43,263 nt of DNA from Terriglobia bacterium (GTDB taxonomy: Bacteria > Acidobacteriota > Terriglobia > Terriglobales > Acidobacteriaceae): contig JAIQFP010000029.1 of NCBI GenBank assembly GCA_020073165.1, positions 1-43,263 on the forward strand. Direction: 5' to 3'. Below the pieces are notes generated by a model, which was not told the DNA's origin, did not search any database, and was given only the letters and a program-made list of their open reading frames with translations. The translations under genes and the position numbers were made by a program. The number at the start of each line of letters is the position of its first letter. Position 1 is the first letter of the stretch. This document shows, piece after piece, positions 6,142 to 43,263 of this stretch.

Positions 6142-7535
6142 TGTTTGGCCGCTGTGCTCAGCTTCTCGAGGCTTGCCTTGCTGCCCGCTTCGCAATAGAC
6201 CCGAACCACTGGCTCTGTGCCCGACAGCCGGTAGCACACCCAGGACCCATCGTCGAACAGCAGCTTGAGTCCGTCGGTGCGTACCACTTCGCTGACCTTG
6301 CGGCCGAAGAAGTCGCACGGCTCGAGTCGCAACTTCTCAGTGAACTTCTCCTGCACTTGCGGCGTCAAGCGAAAGTTCTCCCGCTGGGGATAGAAGGAAC
6401 CAACTTTGACAAATAGCTCCTGCAATTGCCGGCCCAGCGGCTTGCCCCGCCGCGCTGCCATCTCGCAGCAGAGCAGGCCCGCCAGGATGCCGTCTTTTTC
6501 CGGAACGTGGTGCCGGATGGATAATCCGGCGCTCTCTTCTCCGCCAATCACGATCTTGTCCTGCTTGATCAGCTCACCAATGTACTTGAAGCCCACCGGG
6601 GTCTCGTGCAGCTCGATTCCATGGTGCTTCGCCAGCGCATTAATAAGGTTGGTCGTGGCCACCGACTTGGCCACTCCATTCTTCCAGCCACGGCTCTCTA
6701 CCAGGTAATCAAAGAGCAGCGCAATGATGTAGTTCGGCTGGAAGAACGTTCCGTCCTCGTCCACGATGCCAAAGCGGTCCGCATCGCCGTCGGTGGCGAT
6801 CCCGATGTGGGCTTTCATCTCACGCATCTTCTTCCGCATGTCGTCGAGCAGGTGATCGTCCGGCTCGGGAGCATGTCCGCCGAAAAGCACGTCACGATAG
6901 TCGTGCACGGCCGCCACTTCGACGCCGGCGTCGCGCAAGAGCGAGTCGGGATAACCCCGCGCCGCTCCCCACAGGGAATCGAAGACCACGCGCAGGCCGG
7001 CCTTCTGAATCGCCGGGAAATCGACGATCTCGCGCAGCCGTGCCAGGTACATGTCGCGGGGATCTAGTGTTTGCACGGCAGCCCGCCCGGTCGCAGCTTT
7101 CGACGAATTTTCGTTGCCACCCAGAGCCGCGATCTCCGCCTCGATCCGCTTCGTCACCTCCGGCAGCGCCGGCGCACCGTCTGGCGTAGAAAACTTGATT
7201 CCGTTGTATTCCGGTGGATTGTGCGAAGCCGTGAAATTGATGGCGCCATCAGCGTGCTCACGGATTACCGCGTAGGCGATGGCAGGAGTGGGAGCAGCTT
7301 CGGCGATCACCAGCGGCGTGATCCCGTACGCCGCAAGAATGTCCGCCGCCATGGTGCAGAATGTTTCCCCCAGAAACCGCGGATCGCGGCCGACAATCAC
7401 CCGTGCTCCGGCAGGTTTCTGCGACGCCACGTAGCGCGCGATGCCGCTCACGGCGCGCCGCACGTTGGCGAAGGTAAACTCCTCCGCCATGACCGCTCGC
7501 CATCCGGAAGTACCGAATTTAATCTGGGTTGCCAT
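6126..7535 (-). CDS. Phosphoglucomutase/phosphomannomutase family protein
   Basis: A 469-residue alpha-D-phosphohexomutase that interconverts hexose 1- and 6-phosphates via a phosphoserine. All four motifs are present: the phosphoserine loop TASHNPPEYNG (Ser104), the metal loop GIATDGDADRFG, the sugar loop GGEESAG and the phosphate loop YRLSGTEP. The length and FGTSGWRA opening are typical. Substrate choice (glucose, mannose or glucosamine phosphate) cannot be read from the sequence; the GEESAG sugar loop is the glucose/mannose type. It is the upstream member of a two-gene unit with the FtsB-like gene. Confidence 0.93.
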   Translation of the reverse strand: MATQIKFGTSGWRAVMAEEFTFANVRRAVSGIARYVASQKPAGARVIVGRDPRFLGETFCTMAADILAAYGITPLVIAEAAPTPAIAYAVIREHADGAINFTASHNPPEYNGIKFSTPDGAPALPEVTKRIEAEIAALGGNENSSKAATGRAAVQTLDPRDMYLARLREIVDFPAIQKAGLRVVFDSLWGAARGYPDSLLRDAGVEVAAVHDYRDVLFGGHAPEPDDHLLDDMRKKMREMKAHIGIATDGDADRFGIVDEDGTFFQPNYIIALLFDYLVESRGWKNGVAKSVATTNLINALAKHHGIELHETPVGFKYIGELIKQDKIVIGGEESAGLSIRHHVPEKDGILAGLLCCEMAARRGKPLGRQLQELFVKVGSFYPQRENFRLTPQVQEKFTEKLRLEPCDFFGRKVSEVVRTDGLKLLFDDGSWVCYRLSGTEPVVRVYCEAGSKASLEKLSTAAKQWIFE

Positions 7536-35862: not shown

Positions 35863-37242
35863 TTGTCGCAACATTTCGACGCCATCATCATCGGGACGGG
35901 CCAGGCAGGCCCGTCCCTGGCGGCTCGGTTTTCCGCCGCGGGCAAGACAGTCGCTATTATCGAACGTCACAAGTTTGGCGGCACTTGTGTGAACACCGGA
36001 TGCATCCCGACCAAGACGCTCGTTGCCAGCGCCTACGCGGCCCACGTTGCTCGCCGAGGTGGTGAATACGGTTTCAGCGTCAGCAGCGATGTGCGCGTCG
36101 ATATGAAGCGCGTCAAAGCACGCAAGGATGCAGTCTCCGGACGGTCGAACAAAGGCGTAGAAGAATGGTTGCGAGGACTTAAGAATTGCAAGGTCATCCA
36201 AGGCCATGCCCGTTTTCAATCGTCGGACGCTGTCGTGGTCAATGATGAAGTCCTCGAAGCCGACAAAATTTATATCAACGTCGGCGGACGCGCGTCTGTT
36301 CCAGAGATGCCGGGGATTCATGATGTTCCGTTTCTCAACAACTCATCGATAATGGACGTTGATTTCCTGCCGGAGCATCTCGTGGTTGTCGGTGGAAGTT
36401 ATGTCGGGTTGGAATTCGCTCAGATGTATCGCCGCTTCGGGAGCGAAGTCACGATTGTAGAGATGGGTGCCCGCTTGATTGGACGTGAAGACGAAGATCT
36501 GTCCCAAGCCGTGCGCGAAATCCTGGAGAAGGAGGGAATACAGATTCGGCTGAATGCAAAATGCATATCACTGGCGAAGCGCAACAGCCATATTAGGGTC
36601 GGCGTCGATTGCGAGGAAGGTCCGCCGGAAGTATTGGGCACTCATGTTCTCCTGGCCGTGGGACGTACTCCCAACACGCACGACCTTGGCCTTGACCGCG
36701 CCGGGGTTGCAACCGACCAGCGCGGCTACATCATGGTTGATGATCAACTGCAAACCTACGTGCCCGGCATTTGGGCCCTGGGTGACTGCAACGGCCGCGG
36801 CGCCTTTACGCATACTTCGTACAACGACTATGAGATCGTCGCCGACAATCTTTTCAACGCAGACCATCGCCGCGTGTCAGACCGAATTCAGGCGTACGCC
36901 TTGTATATAGATCCGCCCTTAGGCCGCTGCGGCATGACGGACGCTGACATACGGAAGTCCGGACGTCGTGCACTCATTACGAAATATCCCATGAGCCGGG
37001 TGAGCCGGGCCTATGAAAAAGGTGAAACACAAGGTTTCATGAAAATCTGTGTTGATGCGGAAACAAAACAGATTCTGGGTGCTGCGATTCTTGGCACCGG
37101 CGGCGATGAAGTCGTTCATGTTTTGCTGGATGTCATGTACGCGAAGGCTCCCTACACGGTCATACAGCGTGCAATGCATATTCATCCTACGGTTGCGGAA
37201 TATCTCCCTACCGTCTTGTTCAAACTGGAGCCTTTTGCGTGA
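35863..37242 (+). CDS. MerA-like FAD/NAD(P) disulfide oxidoreductase
   Basis: A 459-residue class I pyridine-nucleotide disulfide oxidoreductase. FAD site: FDAIIIGTGQAGPSLAARF (6-24). Redox pair: GGTCVNTGCIPTK (Cys42, Cys47). NAD(P) site: VVVGGSYVGLEFAQMYRRFG, with a second FAD motif at YVPGIWALGDCNGRGAFT. The dimerisation domain ends with HIHPTVAEYLPTVL, which carries the His-Pro of the active site. It lacks the N-terminal HMA domain and the C-terminal Cys pair of true mercuric reductase, so mercury reduction is not supported. The start is TTG, with AAAGGAG upstream. Confidence 0.9.
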   Translation: MSQHFDAIIIGTGQAGPSLAARFSAAGKTVAIIERHKFGGTCVNTGCIPTKTLVASAYAAHVARRGGEYGFSVSSDVRVDMKRVKARKDAVSGRSNKGVEEWLRGLKNCKVIQGHARFQSSDAVVVNDEVLEADKIYINVGGRASVPEMPGIHDVPFLNNSSIMDVDFLPEHLVVVGGSYVGLEFAQMYRRFGSEVTIVEMGARLIGREDEDLSQAVREILEKEGIQIRLNAKCISLAKRNSHIRVGVDCEEGPPEVLGTHVLLAVGRTPNTHDLGLDRAGVATDQRGYIMVDDQLQTYVPGIWALGDCNGRGAFTHTSYNDYEIVADNLFNADHRRVSDRIQAYALYIDPPLGRCGMTDADIRKSGRRALITKYPMSRVSRAYEKGETQGFMKICVDAETKQILGAAILGTGGDEVVHVLLDVMYAKAPYTVIQRAMHIHPTVAEYLPTVLFKLEPFA

Positions 37243-37347
37243 GAGGCAGAGCGCATAGGAGGAAAACATGGCAAGGCCGGGTGCCCCACAGGAACTTTTT
37301 GACGTCCCCCGCCGTATCTCAGGCCAAGCTCTCCCCAGGGGGACGAC

Positions 37348-38061
37348 ATGCATTCCACCCGGAACCCCGGCAGATTCGCAGGCTTGCTGTATGTACTGGT
37401 GTCAATCCCGGGCGTCTTCGCCCTCATGTACGTGCCCAGCAAGCTGATCGTGCACGGCAACGCCACCGCGACGGCCAGCAACATCACGGCCTCAGAGACG
37501 CTGTTTCGCGCCGGCATCGCGTGCAACCTCATCGGCCAGGTCCTTTTTATGTGGGTGACGCTGGCGCTGTACGATCTGCTGAAAGGGGTCAACCGGCGGC
37601 ACGCCTTGCTCATGCTGGGATTGTTTGTGGTGTCCGTCCCGATCGCGATGCTGAATGAGCTGAATTCCGTCGCGGCCCTCATCCTGGTGCGGGGAACTGA
37701 TTTCCTGTCCATCGTTGACAAGCCGCAGCGGGATGCTCTGGCCATGCTGTTCCTCAATCTGCATGGTCGCGGATTTGGCATCGCCGAAATATTCTGGGGT
37801 CTTTGGCTGTTACCGCTGGGGCTGCTGGTGTACCGGTCGGGCTTTATTCCCCGCATCCTGGGGGTGCTGCTGATGGTTAATTGCTTTTCCTATGTGGTAA
37901 CCAGTTTCACGTCCTTCGTCCTGCCACAGTACGAAAGCATCGTCGCCCGATGGATGATGCCGCTCCAGTTTGGAGAACTGTTGTTTATGCTTTGGCTTCT
38001 GATCATGGGCGCAAAGCCCAAGCCGTTAGCGGGTGCAGCCTCCTCGGCGGCGGTTGGTTAG
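37348..38061 (+). CDS. DUF4386 membrane protein
   Basis: A 237-residue polytopic protein of the DUF4386 family with about six transmembrane helices (around 12-30, 55-75, 86-104, 150-170, 172-195, 205-225). Family blocks are RFAGLLYVLVSIPGVFALMYVPSKLIV, LFRAGIACNLIGQVLFMWVTLALYDLLKGVN and GFGIAEIFWGLWLLPLGLLVYRSGFIPRILGVLLM. Function unknown. AGGGGG precedes the ATG. A short frame with AGGAGG at 37268 lies just upstream, but looks non-coding. Confidence 0.88.
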   Translation: MHSTRNPGRFAGLLYVLVSIPGVFALMYVPSKLIVHGNATATASNITASETLFRAGIACNLIGQVLFMWVTLALYDLLKGVNRRHALLMLGLFVVSVPIAMLNELNSVAALILVRGTDFLSIVDKPQRDALAMLFLNLHGRGFGIAEIFWGLWLLPLGLLVYRSGFIPRILGVLLMVNCFSYVVTSFTSFVLPQYESIVARWMMPLQFGELLFMLWLLIMGAKPKPLAGAASSAAVG

Positions 38062-38116
38062 GCGCACTCCGCGAAGGGTTGGCGCACCCGGCTCTTAGTT
38101 AAGGCAGCGTCCCGTC

Positions 38117-38150
38117 TGTCCCCAGTTTGTCCGTCTGTCCCCAGTTTGTC
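38117..38150 (+). repeat. Tandem GTCTGTCCCCAGTTTGTCC
   Basis: Two tandem copies of a 19-bp unit, the first truncated at the window's repeat start. Related GTCTGTCCCC motifs occur at about 40101-40115 (inverted) and 40288. The stretch 38062-38298 holds this repeat, a hairpin repeat and no supportable gene. Confidence 0.55.
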
Positions 38151-38165
38151 CAAGCAGCATCGTAC

Positions 38166-38198
38166 CCCACTCATTCGCAAAGAACGCGAATGAGTGGG
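38166..38198 (+). repeat. Hairpin repeat, copy 1
   Basis: CCCACTCATTCGC and GCGAATGAGTGGG are perfectly complementary (13 bp) around AAAGAAC. A GGGCCGCCCGCC tail follows. First of at least six copies between 38.1 and 42.8 kb. Confidence 0.8.
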
Positions 38199-38298
38199 CC
38201 GCCCGCCCGTGTGCGAGTCAACGCACAGGAGACGGTGACAGGGCGCACTGACCGGCGCTCGAATGAGTGCTGAGATAGCGCCGAAAGGAAGCTGTCTT

Positions 38299-38769
38299 GT
38301 GAAGTCACCAGATCTCGACGAGATCCAACGCCGCTTTGTGGCAATGCCACCCGAGGAGTTCGCACTCCTTAAGCGCGGGGACCTCACGGAATCAGGGCGC
38401 GAGCTGTACGATCGAGAAATCGAACGTCGCAGTAGCCCCGAGTGGTCTGCGCTGCAAGCGCGCAAAGAAGCAGAATACGTGAAACGCCTCGAGGGTTACA
38501 CGTCAAAGTATCATTGTCCACAATGCCAGGAGAAACTTAAGCGAGGCGAGTACGCAAGGTGGGTCAAGTGGTTCATTGGACCGATCTTCGGCCGGTTGCT
38601 GAGGCCGCTGATCTGCAAGCAACACGGAGAAATAGACATTGAATTGTTGGCCGCGGAGGAACAACGGTCGGCGAAGACAGCGAGATTCATTGGTCTTGTA
38701 GTCGGAGGCATTCTCAACGTCATCCTTTTCGTTTTCCTGCTGTGGTATTCCTTCTTCAGCGAACTGTAG
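38299..38769 (+). CDS. Zinc-ribbon-like membrane protein, hypothetical
   Basis: A 156-residue protein. A charged N-terminal part (DEIQRRFVAMPPEEFALLKRGDLTESGRELYDREIERR) is followed by a Cys/His set CPQC..ICKQHG (about residues 75-115) that could bind zinc, then one C-terminal transmembrane helix (FIGLVVGGILNVILFVFLLWYSFF). No family recognised. The start is taken as GTG 38299, with AAAGGA 9-10 nt upstream; an in-frame ATG at 38263 falls in repeat-like DNA. Flanked on both sides by hairpin repeats. Confidence 0.65.
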   Translation: MKSPDLDEIQRRFVAMPPEEFALLKRGDLTESGRELYDREIERRSSPEWSALQARKEAEYVKRLEGYTSKYHCPQCQEKLKRGEYARWVKWFIGPIFGRLLRPLICKQHGEIDIELLAAEEQRSAKTARFIGLVVGGILNVILFVFLLWYSFFSEL

Positions 38770-38805
38770 TCTGGAATTCAGGAACCGAGAGGCGGGGCGG
38801 GTGGC

Positions 38806-38836
38806 CCACTCATTCGCGTTCCTTGCGAATGAGTGG
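38806..38836 (-). repeat. Hairpin repeat, copy 2 (inverted)
   Basis: CCACTCATTCGC and GCGAATGAGTGG (12 bp) around GTTCCTT. On the minus strand the loop reads AAGGAAC, so the element is inverted relative to copy 1. Confidence 0.75.
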
Positions 38837-38921
38837 CGATGCGACGCTGCACGCAATACCTACAGCCTGGATGGGTGTGCGAGTCAATGATCACGATAAG
38901 TGTCCGTCGGCAGCACCCCAC

Positions 38922-38954
38922 CCCATACATTCGCAAAGAGCGCGAATGTATGGG
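38922..38954 (+). repeat. Hairpin repeat, copy 3 (compensated)
   Basis: CCCATACATTCGC and GCGAATGTATGGG (13 bp) around AAAGAGC, followed by a GGGCCACCCCGCC tail and another GGGCCACCCGCC. Two stem bases differ from copy 1 and both partner bases changed with them. Confidence 0.8.
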
Positions 38955-38990
38955 CCACCCCGCCTGTCTGGGCCACCCGCCGTCGACACC

Positions 38991-39989
38991 TTAAGGTACG
39001 TAGCCCGTGGTGGAGCCGACTATCTTCAGAAAGAATGTTATAGCTCCTTCGATCAGCTTCGTTGAGGGTTCAACGATAACCGGAATCACATGCGAGATAG
39101 CTCGACCATTAAATGTGATTTCCGCACGAAACTTCATCCGAAACGGTCGGCCTGCGGCCTGCATCAGATTGTTTATCTTGACCAGCTTCGCATGATCTAT
39201 CGGAACTTGAAAGTCCTGTCCACTGCGCTCAAGTCTGTCGCTGTCAATCTTGGCCTCGTGCATGTCAAGGTAATCCAACTGGGTCAGCACGATGTCGCGG
39301 TCAGCCGTAATCCATAAGATTGGACCGTTGGGATACTCGCCAATAAATTCAGCCTTGATTTGAGGATTGCGGAACTCATCGCGTGACCCCGCTGTCAGCT
39401 TTGACAGCTGCTGCTCGGCGCGAGCCTCGAATTTAGACAAGCCGGTCTCGAGTCTGCCTAGTTCGTTCCTAGAGCGCAGGTTCTGAATAACCGCCCTTAT
39501 GATTTGAGGCAGGTGTCTCGTCGCAACGGAGCGAAGCTCTTCAAGTGTCGAGTAGGTTGAATACAGCGAGTCTTTTTGACGCTGTGCCCGGTATTCCTTC
39601 AAAGCTTCCAGCTGTCCTCGGTCGGAGTCCCTCGGCACCGGTGCATCCGAAAAATAAAGGGCCACATGCCTGCCTGCCCTGCGAAGCTCCTCGATTTCCT
39701 CAATAGTCCCAGATAAGGCTTCCCCCGTTGGCGTACCAATCCGACAACCGAATATTCCGATTACTGCATCCGCCCCACTGACGATTTGCTTGTTTAGAAG
39801 TTGCTGTGGTCGCCCACCGGAAGCGGGGTAGCTATGCGTTTCCCACTTGATTGGCTCCAATATGACTTGCTGCTCTTGGGAGTGAACCCCGTTCCACGTG
39901 TGGATGACATCGGTAAACAATTCGCGTTCTTTTTCAACGTCCGAAGGGGACGCAATGAGTATCCTCAGAACAATTGCGGCTCTCGCCAT
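38991..39989 (-). CDS. DUF4062/TIR-like N-domain protein
   Basis: A 332-residue protein. The N-terminal domain (about 7-170) reads LRILIASPSDVEKERELFTDVIHTWN, VILEPIKWETHSYPASGGRPQQLLNKQIV, ADAVIGIFGCRIGTPTG, SGTIEEIEEL and HVALYFSDAPVP. These are the hallmarks of the DUF4062-type family with a TIR/deoxyribosyltransferase-like fold. A short coiled segment follows, then a beta-rich C-terminal domain (IKAEFIGEYPNGPILWITADRDIVLTQLDYLD..ISHVIPVIVEPS) that I do not recognise and that could be a sensor. Such fusions often sit in defence regions. No partner gene is adjacent. GGGGAAGA lies upstream of the ATG. Confidence 0.8.
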   Translation of the reverse strand: MARAAIVLRILIASPSDVEKERELFTDVIHTWNGVHSQEQQVILEPIKWETHSYPASGGRPQQLLNKQIVSGADAVIGIFGCRIGTPTGEALSGTIEEIEELRRAGRHVALYFSDAPVPRDSDRGQLEALKEYRAQRQKDSLYSTYSTLEELRSVATRHLPQIIRAVIQNLRSRNELGRLETGLSKFEARAEQQLSKLTAGSRDEFRNPQIKAEFIGEYPNGPILWITADRDIVLTQLDYLDMHEAKIDSDRLERSGQDFQVPIDHAKLVKINNLMQAAGRPFRMKFRAEITFNGRAISHVIPVIVEPSTKLIEGAITFFLKIVGSTTGYVP

Positions 39990-40464
39990 TAGTCTTCCCC
40001 TATTCGTCAGTGATTAACGCCCAAACCACGATAACCAAGCATATTATTGGCGACGCGGCCCGGCCTTCGACGAACAATCATAGGGTCAAGAAAGACCGCG
40101 GACAGACAATTCGGGGACAGACGGAAGTGACCCTAATTGTCGTGCCAGTTCGGGAAATCATTCGCAAATCGCTGCGATTCTGTCAAAGCCCCGACCGGCA
40201 TCCGTTACTTTGGCTGCCAAAAGCCCGTTGCAAATTCTGACCAGGACCAAATGGTTTTTGTGGCCTAGTTAGAATTGGCGTCAGTTCCGTCTGTCCCCGA
40301 TTTTCCCTAACCCCCACTTCTCGCAAAGAACGCGAAGGAGTGCGCCACCCGTGGTTGCGCTCTTTCCTAAATCGGGAGGGGCAAAATCGGAGGAGGATCG
40401 ACATTCTGGGCCACCTGCCAGACGAGGGCCATACAATATCGTTAAGTCCAAAGGAGGATCGCCG
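39990..40464 (+). other. Gene-free stretch with repeats
   Basis: 475 bp without a supportable gene. It contains GGACAGAC/GTCTGTCCCC motifs (about 40101-40115 and 40288), the imperfect hairpin copy at 40311-40347, a GGGCCACCTGCC tail motif near 40409, and the ribosome-binding site of the next gene. Nothing else is recognised. Confidence 0.6.
40311..40347 (+). repeat. Hairpin repeat, copy 4 (degenerate)
   Basis: CCCCACTTCTCGC-AAAGAAC-GCGAAGGAGTGCG followed by CCACCCG. The loop is identical to copy 1, but the stem has mismatches. Confidence 0.6.
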
Positions 40465-40875
40465 ATGAAAAGCGCAATCCTTCGCGTTTTCGCCCTTATC
40501 TTCTTTCTGGCCGGTTGTTGGTATGCGTTCAGTTCGGCGCTGGTGTTGGTCTCCGGGCAGGGGGGACTGGGCCAGATGGGAACCTGCATAGCTGGTCTCT
40601 GGGCATTGGTCGGGTCCGTAGGGTTGTTCAAGCGCGAACGCTGGGGCTGGCGAGTGATGTTGGCCTTTTTCTGTACCGCGGCATCCTGGTTGCTTCTCCA
40701 GTATTTCGTGTTGCCCGAGTGGGCCGGCGGGGTTCCGCAGTATTCCTATTCTTTATACGAGGCGGCTCGGGCGGTGGCAGCACCGTTGATTGCGATTGCG
40801 GTGCTTTTCTGGCTGCGCGGTGAAGTGGAAACCGAACCGCGAGCCACCAGCAAGGCAACAACCCTGGGGATTTGA
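40465..40875 (+). CDS. Small polytopic membrane protein, hypothetical
   Basis: A 136-residue protein with four transmembrane helices (about 5-24, 34-54, 60-80, 98-116) and a charged tail (RGEVETEPRATSK). No family recognised. The start at 40465 has AAAGGAGG 7 nt upstream; the longer in-frame start upstream runs through repeat DNA and is rejected. The following secreted-protein gene starts 70 bp downstream. Confidence 0.75.
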   Translation: MKSAILRVFALIFFLAGCWYAFSSALVLVSGQGGLGQMGTCIAGLWALVGSVGLFKRERWGWRVMLAFFCTAASWLLLQYFVLPEWAGGVPQYSYSLYEAARAVAAPLIAIAVLFWLRGEVETEPRATSKATTLGI

Positions 40876-40945
40876 CCTCCACCGGCTCTGAAGCGAACTG
40901 GGCGCGGCCGAGTTTCAAAGACTGCTGACAACCAAGGAGGTTGTT

Positions 40946-42610
40946 ATGCGCCGCTTCTTGCTGGTTTTCCTTCTGTTGTCTTCTCTGGTATTTGCCCAAG
41001 CCCGCGGAAGCAGTGCATCGAAAGAGAAAGCGCCGCCCCCGGCAGCGCCAGAAGCTACCCCCCGCGTCCTGCCGGGCGACTGGGAATTGAAGCCTCTCAT
41101 TCGTATCGGCGACCCCGCGCCTGAAACCGGCGGCCGGTTCCAAGAATTCAGCGATATTGCCTGGTTCGACTACGGGGGCGCCGCGCCAGACATAGGGCGC
41201 CGCTTTCAAGAGTTTAGCGAAGTCTTCTGGCTGGATTCCGGTGTGCTGGTGTTCTGGGGCCGCTTCGGGCCCAAGCAGTGGGGCCTGTACTCGTGGAAAG
41301 ACGGCCAACTAACCCTGGTGGTGCCCGAGGGGAACAAGGTGCAAGCTCCGCACGCCGAAGGCGTCACGGAAAAACTGGACGTACACCGCAGGTGGGGCTT
41401 GGGGTTTCGAACCATTGTGCAGGCCGGAAAATCTGTTGTGTACATCACTCCTACGCTCGGGTCGTTCCGGCCGACTGCCAGCGTTTACAGCTGGGACGGG
41501 CAGTACTTGCGAAAGGCCCTGGCTCGCGGAGACACAATCTCGCTCGGTGGGATTGCCCACACACTGCGTTCCGTCTGGATCATGAATGTAGGCTCCGACG
41601 GCGCCCTCCTGGTCCTTTATGAAACGCAGAAGCCACGCAAGACCTTCGGACTTGCTCTATTTGACGGCATCACGCTAACCCCCGTGCTCGCTTACGGTGA
41701 CGACCTGCCAGGAATGCGCGGTGTGAAGCCTTACGGCGGGATCTGGTACACGGGTCTGCATCTTCCTGCGATGATGGGTATGTCGCCGATCAGCGTACCG
41801 GGCGCGATGATTGCCGTTACGCGGCTTGCAGCACCCCCCTCCAGCGCGGTCTACCGACTGGCAGGGAACCGCTTCGAAAAACTTTTTGCCCCCGGCGACC
41901 CCCATCCGATTGATCCGAAGCAGAAAGTTCAGGATGTGTCCCTGTTCGGCGCATGGGACCCCGCTGAATTTCTCTTCTGCGTTAACGGAAGAGATGTGTT
42001 CTTGTACCGGCACGGAGAGTCCAAGAAGATCTTTGATGATTCCTGGATGAGCAAGGTATTCAACGTGGACGCAAACGTGTGGTCCGTCAAAAAGTTCGCC
42101 GAGATGAGCTTTGCGAAGTTGGGCGAATTGGATTACGTATTCCTGGTTACCATCTCGCGGCCGGCCACTGGGCGCGAGGAATTCTCCGGTGGCTACTTGG
42201 AACAGGTGGAGTATATGCGGAGTGCTTTCCTGCGCTTCGATGGACGCCAGGTCATCAATCTAACGCAGGCGCTCCCGCTAGATCGCACCAGCGATTTGCA
42301 CTGGATGGCCGGTGATTTCCCTGGGGTGTTGTTGCATGCAAAGCCGCCCCTGCAAGAGATAAGCAATCCTGAACTCATAGAGAGCGTGCGGATACTCGAG
42401 GGTTGGCACCCCCACGAGACCTGGTGGTTCCTGGGTGCCAACGCGGCGGAAAAAGGGTGGGAGCCGGCGCCAGAGTTTCATACCACCGATGGACGGCGTG
42501 TCCATCTCGGGCAAGTGCGGGCCTGGCGCAAGCCGGGAGAAGCGGTGGTGCAACTCGAAGACGGCTTCTACTTGTTGGCGAAGCGAAAAGAGCCTATCCC
42601 CGAACGCTAG
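40946..42610 (+). CDS. Large secreted protein, hypothetical
   Basis: A 554-residue exported protein. The signal peptide is MRRFLLVFLLLSSLVFAQA (1-19), then a Pro/Ala linker. The remainder is strand- and Trp/Tyr-rich with recurring short motifs such as LFDGITLTPVLAYGD, YRLAGNRFEKLFAPGD and YSWDGQYLRKALARGD, which look like blades of a beta-propeller. A local tandem duplication is visible at GRFQEFSDIAWFD and RRFQEFSEVFWLD (about residues 62-95). No family recognised. AAGGAGG precedes the ATG. Two hairpin repeats follow the stop. Confidence 0.8.
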   Translation: MRRFLLVFLLLSSLVFAQARGSSASKEKAPPPAAPEATPRVLPGDWELKPLIRIGDPAPETGGRFQEFSDIAWFDYGGAAPDIGRRFQEFSEVFWLDSGVLVFWGRFGPKQWGLYSWKDGQLTLVVPEGNKVQAPHAEGVTEKLDVHRRWGLGFRTIVQAGKSVVYITPTLGSFRPTASVYSWDGQYLRKALARGDTISLGGIAHTLRSVWIMNVGSDGALLVLYETQKPRKTFGLALFDGITLTPVLAYGDDLPGMRGVKPYGGIWYTGLHLPAMMGMSPISVPGAMIAVTRLAAPPSSAVYRLAGNRFEKLFAPGDPHPIDPKQKVQDVSLFGAWDPAEFLFCVNGRDVFLYRHGESKKIFDDSWMSKVFNVDANVWSVKKFAEMSFAKLGELDYVFLVTISRPATGREEFSGGYLEQVEYMRSAFLRFDGRQVINLTQALPLDRTSDLHWMAGDFPGVLLHAKPPLQEISNPELIESVRILEGWHPHETWWFLGANAAEKGWEPAPEFHTTDGRRVHLGQVRAWRKPGEAVVQLEDGFYLLAKRKEPIPER

Positions 42611-42633
42611 CGCCAGAATCCAGAGGGCGGCCC

Positions 42634-42664
42634 GCTCATTCGCACCCTTTGCGAATGAATGAGC
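42634..42664 (+). repeat. Hairpin repeat, copy 5
   Basis: GCTCATTCGC pairs with GCGAATGA..GAGC around ACCCTTT. The right arm carries an extra ATGA duplication. Confidence 0.65.
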
Positions 42665-42682
42665 CACGCGTCCAGGGACAAA

Positions 42683-42715
42683 CCCCACTTCTCGCACCGA
42701 ACGCGAGAAATGGGG
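42683..42715 (+). repeat. Hairpin repeat, copy 6
   Basis: CCCCACTTCTCGC and GCGAGAAATGGGG pair at 12 of 13 positions around ACCGAAC, followed by CACCCCGCG. Confidence 0.7.
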
Positions 42716-42930
42716 CACCCCGCGCCCCCTTCTTGGTATTTATGGCTTACAACAGCGGCGAAGAGGCGGGCCACCCGCCATACCTGGGCAGACTCATCTC
42801 TCTCCCGCTCACCCCACTCGGTGACCCGCGTCCTTGACAGATATTAGCTAAAAGAGCAATCATGTCGGCACGCTATTCTCAATAAGATATAGCCCGGGCA
42901 GCTAACTCCTGTGTTTGACGGATTTTGCCT

Positions 42931-42984
42931 CTAAGCCCTTTGAAATCAAAGATCGTTTCCCTAAAGCCTTTGTTTTCAAAGATC
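42931..42984 (+). repeat. 24-bp direct repeat with 30-bp period
   Basis: CTAAGCCCTTTGAAATCAAA.. (42931-42954) and CTAAAGCCTTTGTTTTCAAA.. (42961-42984) match at 19 of 24 positions. They are followed by G runs of 6, 5 and 6 (42990-43016). The whole gap 42611-43102 holds repeats and the IS end but no supportable gene. Confidence 0.6.
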
Positions 42985-43021
42985 ACATAGGGGGGAGGGG
43001 GTATCCAATCGGGGGGTACAG

Positions 43022-43063
43022 ACCGGGCACATGCCTGACAGAATGAACCGGGGACATTCCTGA
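43022..43063 (+). repeat. Direct repeat at presumed IS left end
   Basis: ACCGGGCACATGCCTGACA and ACCGGGGACATTCCTGACA lie side by side, 40-80 bp before the transposase start. They probably belong to the insertion-sequence terminus. The right end is outside the window, so the inverted-repeat boundary cannot be fixed. Confidence 0.5.
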
Positions 43064-43102
43064 CACTGCAACGCATGGCGGGTGCGAGGTACAACCTGGC
43101 AC

Positions 43103-43263
43103 ATGCCATGGAGAGCGAGCAGTGTGATGGAAGAGAAGGTCCGGTTCGTTGTTGACTATGAACGGGATGAGCAGACGATGACGGAGTTGTGTGAGCGCTA
43201 CGGGATCGCGCGCGAGACCGGGTATGTGTGGCTACGGCGGTATCGGCAGAGCGGGATGGCCGG
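43103..43263 (+). CDS. IS481-type transposase, 5' part
   Basis: The first 53 codons, cut by the window edge. The frame opens MPWRASSVMEEKVRFVVDY and continues with a helix-turn-helix (MTELCERYGIARETGYVWLRRYRQSG), the characteristic N-terminus of IS481-family transposases. The DDE catalytic domain would lie beyond the window. A GTG/ATG start further inside (43127) is possible, but the MPW.. opening is typical of the family. Confidence 0.8.
   Translation, partial: MPWRASSVMEEKVRFVVDYERDEQTMTELCERYGIARETGYVWLRRYRQSGMA

What the first reader, a model, noticed from the sequence alone, without database searches (positions are those of the whole stretch)
38166..42715. Clustered hairpin-repeat family with compensatory stem changes
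At least six elements of the form CCCACTCATTCGC-(7 nt)-GCGAATGAGTGGG lie in 4.6 kb and none elsewhere in the window. Copy 3 changes two stem bases with both partners matched, one copy is inverted, and most carry a GGGCCACCCGCC-like tail. Covariation implies the folded form matters. They may be REP/MITE-like elements mobilised in trans, or termination/processing signals that spread in accessory DNA.
Basis: partly seen in the sequence, partly recalled or inferred. Interest (0 to 1): 0.55.

Follow-up and report, generated by a model that had tools for sequence, protein, structure and literature searches.

The report
REP hairpins of a soil acidobacterium
These short hairpins are mobile "REP" repeats that single-strand DNA transposases appear to copy around acidobacterial genomes, each transposase lineage with its own hairpin stem; they are a new branch of a known kind of element, not a new kind of system.

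Summary
The six hairpins are real and confined to 38.16-42.72 kb of the window. They belong to a family with at least 48 places in this genome (covariance search, E<=0.02). They are REP elements of a RAYT (TnpA-REP) system of Acidobacteriota, in a variant form: tag GGGTG[C/G], foot CCC, variable but paired stem, loop, GGG. Of 140 unique RAYT domains of one clade, 119 have such a hairpin within 500 bp, mostly as REP-rayt-REP with tags outward. Both flanks of a RAYT share a stem; stems differ between RAYTs and diverge with them (r 0.38, 0 of 2000 permutations). The window's stem flanks RAYTs in two relatives but none found in its own genome, so here it looks orphaned. Wobble pairs fit the tag-5' strand 151 to 16, which argues for a folded single strand. 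Insertions with empty counterparts exist: one intergenic, others inside RAYT genes. A terminator role is not supported as the main function. The tag is mostly GTGC, not the canonical GT[AG]G. Strand cleavage and transfer by the RAYT is inferred from homology, not shown.

The parts
38163..38204 (-). REP copy 1, stem CTCATTCGC, hairpin 38166-38198; strand given is the one with the tag at the 5' side (tag here GGGCGG)
   Evidence: z -5.6; E 2.1e-6
38799..38840 (+). REP copy 2, stem CTCATTCGC, inverted relative to copy 1; tag GGGTGG
   Evidence: z -4.3; E 1.1e-4
38919..38960 (-). REP copy 3, stem TACATTCGC with two compensated changes; tag GGGTGG
   Evidence: z -7.0; E 7.3e-7
38967..38981 (.). lone tail-like sequence TCTGGGCCACCCGCC without a hairpin (others at 40405-40419 and near 42768)
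   Evidence: nature not established, perhaps remains of REPs
40310..40350 (-). REP copy 4, degenerate; a better kept hairpin stands at the same edge of the homologous block in G049 (L335 about 4335)
   Evidence: z -0.9; E 1.3e-4
42625..42666 (+). REP copy 5, stem CTCATTCGC with changes, inverted relative to copy 1
   Evidence: z -2.9; E 0.059
42681..42720 (-). REP copy 6, another stem class (TTCTCGC) with a T.G wobble at pair 5; tag GGGTGC
   Evidence: z -5.0; E 1.5e-9

Best explanation
The hairpins are REP elements: non-autonomous substrates of RAYT (TnpA-REP) HUH/Tyr transposases of Terriglobia-type Acidobacteriota. The working form is one DNA strand, 5'-GGGTG[C/G]-CCC[A/G]-stem-(often 7-nt loop)-stem'-GGG-3', when it is single-stranded. 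The RAYT binds the folded hairpin, uses the bases at its 5' foot as a guide, cuts beside it and joins the element (about 36-41 nt) to a new site without evident target duplication. Each RAYT lineage spreads copies of its own flanking hairpin, so stems differ between lineages while foot and tag stay constant. In the window's genome the CATTCGC copies look orphaned: the only RAYT of this clade found there carries a GGTCTCG stem. Shown here: the family, stem covariation, strand asymmetry, REP-rayt-REP linkage, stem-RAYT co-divergence, insertion/empty-site pairs. Inferred: single-strand cleavage and transfer, guide use, action in trans, loss of the cognate RAYT.
For: 48 places at E<=0.02 in the own genome. 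Stem-blind pattern: 43 of 150 family genomes, control 0 in all 150; 89% of stem positions pair against 62% shuffled; covariation 0.735 against 0.202. Wobbles 151 against 16 by strand, 60 against 13 without pair 5. RAYT clade over the NF047646 cut-off in 3 of 3 tested; 119 of 140 unique domains flanked within 500 bp; tags outward 98 against 8 upstream and 107 against 18 downstream within 150 bp; both-side stem similarity 0.90 against 0.44 shuffled in 82 RAYTs. Mantel r 0.375, 0 of 2000. Window stem beside RAYTs L299 and L310. Insertions with empty counterparts; presence in 3 of 16 orthologous spacers. Closest solved structure is E. coli TnpA-REP, 4er8, E 4.7e-17.
Against: The tag is GTGC in 228 and GTGG in 38 of 266 RAYT-adjacent hairpins, so the canonical GT[AG]G is mostly absent. 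21 of 140 clade domains have no frame hairpin within 500 bp. No RAYT with the window's stems was found in the own genome. NF047646 is also passed by L013, a Y1 gene of another type without such hairpins. Three of the 29 best PF01797 loci of other types (L143, L151, L158) have a frame hairpin within 700 bp or inside the open frame. The loci tested are the top-scoring ones, and the profile was built from flanked RAYTs. No activity was tested.
Confidence: 0.92

Rival explanations
1. The hairpins are transcription terminators or RNA processing/stability signals that spread in accessory DNA; the RNA fold is what is selected.
For: Strand-asymmetric wobble would also fit an RNA fold. TTTT follows 34 of 178 dispersed hairpins on the tag-5' strand. 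29 of 103 classified spacer copies are convergent against 21% of spacer length.
Against: None of the six is terminator-like and terminator-like sites are not above shuffles (7 found, mean 6.1, sd 2.9). Orientation between tandem genes is 28 against 30 (crude gene caller). The linkage to RAYT genes and the matched stems are not explained.
Confidence: 0.04
2. REP elements as in the best explanation, but stem differences are neutral: each RAYT spreads whatever stem flanks it, changes are compensated only to keep a hairpin, and the protein does not read the stem sequence.
For: For the studied TnpA-REPs the main determinants are guide, bulge or loop, with a milder role for stem sequence (PMC8266576, passages). 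RAYTs of about 45% identity can share a stem motif (L284/L243 against L310). Co-inheritance alone gives a Mantel correlation.
Against: Stems are kept alike on both sides of 82 RAYTs, and several stem classes coexist in one genome, which neutral copying also allows; not decisive.
Confidence: 0.5
3. They are MITEs of a DDE transposase or ends of another mobile element, and the RAYT linkage is incidental.
For: The region holds other mobile DNA: GTCTGTCCCC repeats and an HTH of an IS-like transposase at the contig end.
Against: Flanking in 119 of 140 RAYT domains with matched stems on both sides; no target duplication evident at the clean site; a single hairpin of 36-41 nt moves, not a pair of ends.
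Confidence: 0.02

Closest known systems
REPtron: RAYT/TnpA-REP with REP elements (PMC2817692, PMC3686654, PMC6006769)
   Same: REP-rayt-REP with inverted REPs, HUH and Tyr motifs, dispersed copies, compensated stem changes, RAYT-REP co-divergence, orphan REPs.
   Different: Tag GTGC in most and GTGG in some; T.G wobble frequent at pair 5; host is Acidobacteriota.
TnpA-REP subclass 2.4 = RAYT group 4 (PMC6006769)
   Same: Foot of three G-C pairs; REPs inserted within the RAYT gene without stopping it; WQ motif.
   Different: HUH motif here mostly EHVH (Table 1: NH[IFV]H) and Y motif Y[IVM]HRNP (Table 1: YIxNNP); no tree with reference members was made.
E. coli TnpA-REP and its REPs (PDB 4er8; group 2)
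   Same: Best solved relative by sequence; acts on single-stranded REP and not its complement (PMC8266576).
   Different: GTAG guide and a two-mismatch bulge there; GGGTG[C/G] and at most a wobble at pair 5 here.
TIRYT / TIRtrons of Acidobacteria (PMC3733652)
   Same: Tyrosine transposases of Koribacter, Terriglobus, Acidobacterium and Granulicella flanked by inverted repeats, one set being a repeat family.
   Different: The GGGGWSAS motif of those ends fits the window's other repeat (GGGGACAG), not these hairpins; the figure with the sequences is not held, so overlap cannot be excluded.
Class 3 HuH proteins with hairpins, about 600 copies in Solibacter (PMC6006769)
   Same: Acidobacterial hairpin repeats near a HuH gene.
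   Different: Class 3 has foot CnGA and a Y motif ending in Q; here GGGTG and HRNP.

Membership tests
REP elements of a RAYT (broad sense) | Palindromic, repeated, mostly extragenic | tested here: met
   48 places at E<=0.02 in the own genome; 21 of 178 dispersed copies in predicted genes while 68% of the sequence is predicted coding
REP elements of a RAYT (broad sense) | RAYT gene flanked by inverted copies | tested here: met
   119 of 140 unique clade domains within 500 bp; tags outward 98 vs 8 and 107 vs 18
REP elements of a RAYT (broad sense) | Cognate RAYT for each REP class, co-divergence | tested here: met
   0.90 vs 0.44 both-side similarity; Mantel r 0.375
REP elements of a RAYT (broad sense) | Transposase of the REP-associated family with HUH and Tyr | tested here: met
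   NF047646 over cut-off in 3 of 3 clade proteins; HUH and Tyr columns in alignment A2
REP elements of a RAYT (broad sense) | RAYT cleaves and moves the single-stranded REP | not testable with these tools
   Only indirect: insertions with empty counterparts, strand-biased wobble
Canonical REP (GT[AG]G tag 0-2 nt from the foot) | GTAG or GTGG at the 5' foot | tested here: not met
   GTGG in 38 of 266, GTGC in 228 of 266 by the first base after the foot
Subclass 2.4 / RAYT group 4 | REPs inside the RAYT gene, three G-C pairs at the foot | tested here: met
   (L187/L190, L208, L220, L210). The three G-C pairs at the foot are required by my scanner, so that part is not independent.
Subclass 2.4 / RAYT group 4 | Motifs NH[IFV]H, WQ, YIxNNP and place in the tree | tested here: inconclusive
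   Motifs read by eye against Table 1: WQ mostly met, HUH and Y motifs differ; no tree made
Intrinsic terminators | Hairpin with a T run, oriented with transcription | tested here: not met
   0 of 6 in the window; TTTT after 34 of 178; orientation 28 vs 30
Rfam RNA families | Match to a covariance model | tested here: not met
   0 matches at E<=1 in 36000-43263

The most novel reading that the evidence does not exclude
In this clade the stem sequence is the address: foot and tag are constant while each RAYT reads its own stem, so one protein scaffold has been re-programmed in nature to many single-stranded hairpin sequences (44 seven-base stem classes among 110 RAYT-hairpin pairs). That would differ from the studied TnpA-REPs, where guide, bulge or loop dominate.
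Probability: 0.3. Interest if true: 0.6.

Novelty: new variant of a known kind. Interest (0 to 1): 0.35.

Why it matters
It extends well-supported REP-rayt-REP units to a major soil phylum with a different guide-like tag. It yields 110 natural RAYT-hairpin pairs in 44 stem classes, a ready set for asking what an HUH transposase reads in a DNA hairpin. The strand-biased wobble is a sequence-only test of which strand is the substrate. It also explains small palindromes in acidobacterial genomes that could be taken for terminators or RNA genes.

Tried and rejected
Rfam: no match at E<=1 in 36000-43263. The best PF01797 hits of the family (29 loci, L131-L159) are mostly other Y1 types; 3 of 29 (L143, L151, L158) had a frame hairpin within 700 bp or in the open frame. 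A first script assumed every locus was turned to the + strand and gave wrong proteins; redone with strands.

Pair 38166(+)/38805(-) around ORF 38263-38769 as a mobile cassette: tags point inward, opposite to the REP-rayt-REP layout, and no second copy was seen; not kept. Block 40312-42628, bounded by copies 4 and 5, is 94% identical in G049 but in another order. 10 of 17 alignment ends between the two genomes have a REP or tag within 80 nt in at least one of them, against 0-8% of positions by locus and 14% in 38-43 kb; the loci were chosen for their REPs, so this only suggests that REPs mark breakpoints. The insertion in G049 at window 31700 is not a REP. The spacer of L065:2165-2197 has the REP in 3 of 16 genomes but is too diverged for a clean empty site; the other REP of that locus (6513-6547) also gave no clean empty site of its own. 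Plasmids: no match for one RAYT at E<=1e-15. Viral contigs: 4 stretches on 3 contigs, only scanned for hairpins.
Full report
OBSERVATION. The window holds six hairpins between 38163 and 42720 and no others (six places at E<=0.059, the next at 0.96). Three have the quoted stem within 3 mismatches, 0.00 expected by shuffling. Copy 3 has two compensated changes; copy 6 has another stem; copy 4 is degenerate; copies 2 and 5 are inverted. The window is a whole contig (C30) of a genome of 4.6 Mb in 35 contigs.

ONE FRAME, MANY STEMS. The own genome holds the same frame with many other stems (51 places, 16 for the reversed control, so some are chance), besides 8 sites with the quoted stem within 3 mismatches. 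A covariance model from 23 elements in RAYT loci of relatives finds 54 places at E<=0.5, of which 48 at E<=0.02; 150 of 2356 candidates were scored, so this is a lower bound. A pattern that fixes only CCCAC, GCAAAGAACGC and TGGG[GC]CACCC hits 43 of 150 genomes of the family, with 0 for the reversed control in all 150.

THE FOLD IS KEPT, AND ON ONE STRAND. Among 78 distinct elements found without fixing the stem, 476 of 532 stem positions (89%) are Watson-Crick, against 62% (maximum 68%) with shuffled partners. In the 23-row alignment 98.2% of cells pair against 70.2% shuffled, with 75 both-side changes against 26 and covariation 0.735 against 0.202; the rows were chosen as good hairpins, which biases the percentage. 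Mismatches are strand-asymmetric. Among unique RAYT-adjacent hairpins 151 are wobbles on the tag-5' strand and 16 on the other, 60 against 13 without pair 5; in dispersed copies of L015-L130 126 against 10, and 44 against 8. That is expected if the tag-5' strand is the one that folds, as DNA or RNA. Cells are not independent events.

RAYT LINKAGE. The own genome has six Y1 genes. One of them (C6:118888-119403) belongs to the clade below and has a GGTCTCG hairpin 97 nt upstream. In 65 Y1 loci of the own and other genomes, 17 had a frame hairpin within 700 bp or in the open frame; most of these 17 share one protein type, from which I built a profile. Three tested members pass the NCBIfam RAYT model NF047646; L013, of another type and without hairpins, passes it too. 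The profile finds matches at E<=1e-20 in 121 of 150 family genomes, a threshold that also lets in other Y1 types. I took its top-scoring places (30 loci given by the tool, 96 fetched regions) and the own one. Of 158 unique domains, 140 score at least 100 bits and 119 of these have a frame hairpin within 500 bp, 21 do not; of 18 below 100 bits 2 do, and both are fragments in loci of flanked RAYTs. Within 150 bp: upstream tag-outward 98 against 8, downstream 107 against 18. In 82 RAYTs with both sides the stems agree at 0.90 (47 identical) against 0.44 shuffled, maximum 0.50. Over 110 RAYTs protein distance and stem mismatch correlate (r 0.375, 0 of 2000 permutations); mismatch is 0.06 below 20% divergence and about 0.61 above 45%; there are 44 seven-base classes. 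The window's CATTCG stem flanks L299 on both sides and L310 downstream (CATCGC upstream); these proteins are 69% identical. The TTCTCGC stem of copy 6 flanks L297, L298 and L308. Neither stem was seen beside the six Y1 genes of the own genome; the assembly has gaps.

MOBILITY. In L381 a net 41-nt insertion carrying one hairpin lies where G082, G153, G163 and G142 have none; no target duplication is evident (boundaries are my reading). Inside RAYT genes, hairpin insertions of 36-48 nt with empty counterparts occur in L187/L190 (one gene), L208, L220 and L210; the counterparts of L210 are only 62-69% identical; L208 and L220 share a position and may be one event, and their insert begins at or next to GTGC. 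One spacer has a REP in 3 of 16 genomes. Short-spaced inverted pairs (up to 150 bp) favour tags outward, 11 to 1; the loci scanned overlap in part, so some pairs may count twice.

TERMINATOR RIVAL. None of the six is terminator-like. Of 178 dispersed copies 21 lie in predicted genes, 58 between tandem, 29 between convergent and 16 between divergent genes, 54 at locus edges were left out; orientation to tandem genes is 28 against 30; the gene caller is crude. A T run follows 34 of 178 on the tag-5' strand and 4 on the other, so a secondary terminator role of some copies stays open.

MECHANISM. The best solved relative is E. coli TnpA-REP (4er8). That protein acts on single-stranded REP and not on its complement, cuts at CT beside it and needs GTAG (PMC8266576, passages). 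I infer that these RAYTs act on the folded tag-5' strand, use the GGGTG[C/G] foot as guide and move single elements in trans. None of this was tested.

WHAT IS KNOWN. Seen: PMC3733652 section 16 and passages; PMC6006769 sections 12 and 17 and passages; PMC8266576 passages; PMC2817692 passages with parts of the abstract; PMC3686654 abstract and outline. They establish REP-rayt-REP units, complementary changes, RAYT-REP coevolution, REPs inside RAYT genes (subclass 2.4) and REPs left after RAYT loss. Searches with REP or RAYT and Acidobacteria or Koribacter (of which 15 of 36 papers were listed) showed only PMC3733652 and PMC6006769 on the subject. The figure of PMC3733652 with the acidobacterial repeat sequences is not held, and preprints and most subscription papers are not searched, so these elements may be in print. 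The tag (GTGC in 228, GTGG in 38 of 266), the frequent T.G wobble at pair 5 and the host group set them apart; hence a new variant of a known kind.

A SECOND REPEAT FAMILY. The GTCTGTCCCC repeats of the window (38112-38150, 40101-40124, 40287-40305) are distinct. Inverted ends of 30-32 nt with the same core flank the other Y1 type in L009 and L012 and, at 80%, L010, and GGGGACAG fits the GGGGWSAS motif of TIRYT ends (PMC3733652). Window 40108-40303, two such ends 134 nt apart, looks like an internally deleted copy: its halves match the two ends of the L009 element at 78-80%.

Noticed in passing
window 40108-40138 and 40273-40303 (also 38112-38150): A second repeat family, core CCGTCTGTCCCC, whose inverted copies flank the other Y1 transposase type in L009, L012 and L010. 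The window pair, 134 nt apart, looks like a small internally deleted element. PMC6006769 reports no REP-like repeats for the subclass (2.1) that this transposase resembles by its motifs, while PMC3733652 describes such ends as TIRs.
   Followed up: partly
L317:4082-4430 (own genome C31): A non-coding repeat of about 350 bp with more than a dozen matches in G049 at 69-80%, several of them close to REPs.
   Followed up: no
window 40312-42628: Two-gene block bounded by REP copies 4 and 5, 94% identical in G049 but in another gene order; REPs or tags lie near 10 of 17 alignment ends compared.
   Followed up: partly
L318, about 1700-1737 and 2810-2847 (own genome C34): A direct repeat of about 38 nt directly beside two REPs that bracket about 1.1 kb with one gene; the second copy continues into a neighbouring gene conserved in G049.
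   Followed up: no
window 38991-39989 (-): 332-aa frame with a DUF4062 match below Pfam's cut-off (20.4 against 24.7 bits).
   Followed up: no
window 43100-43263: Start of an IS-like transposase (HTH_28/HTH_23) at the contig end.
   Followed up: no
L342, L343, L345 (IMG/VR contigs): Contigs of a viral collection with REPs of this frame; whether phage or host DNA was not decided. L344 matched the pattern but not the hairpin scan.
   Followed up: no
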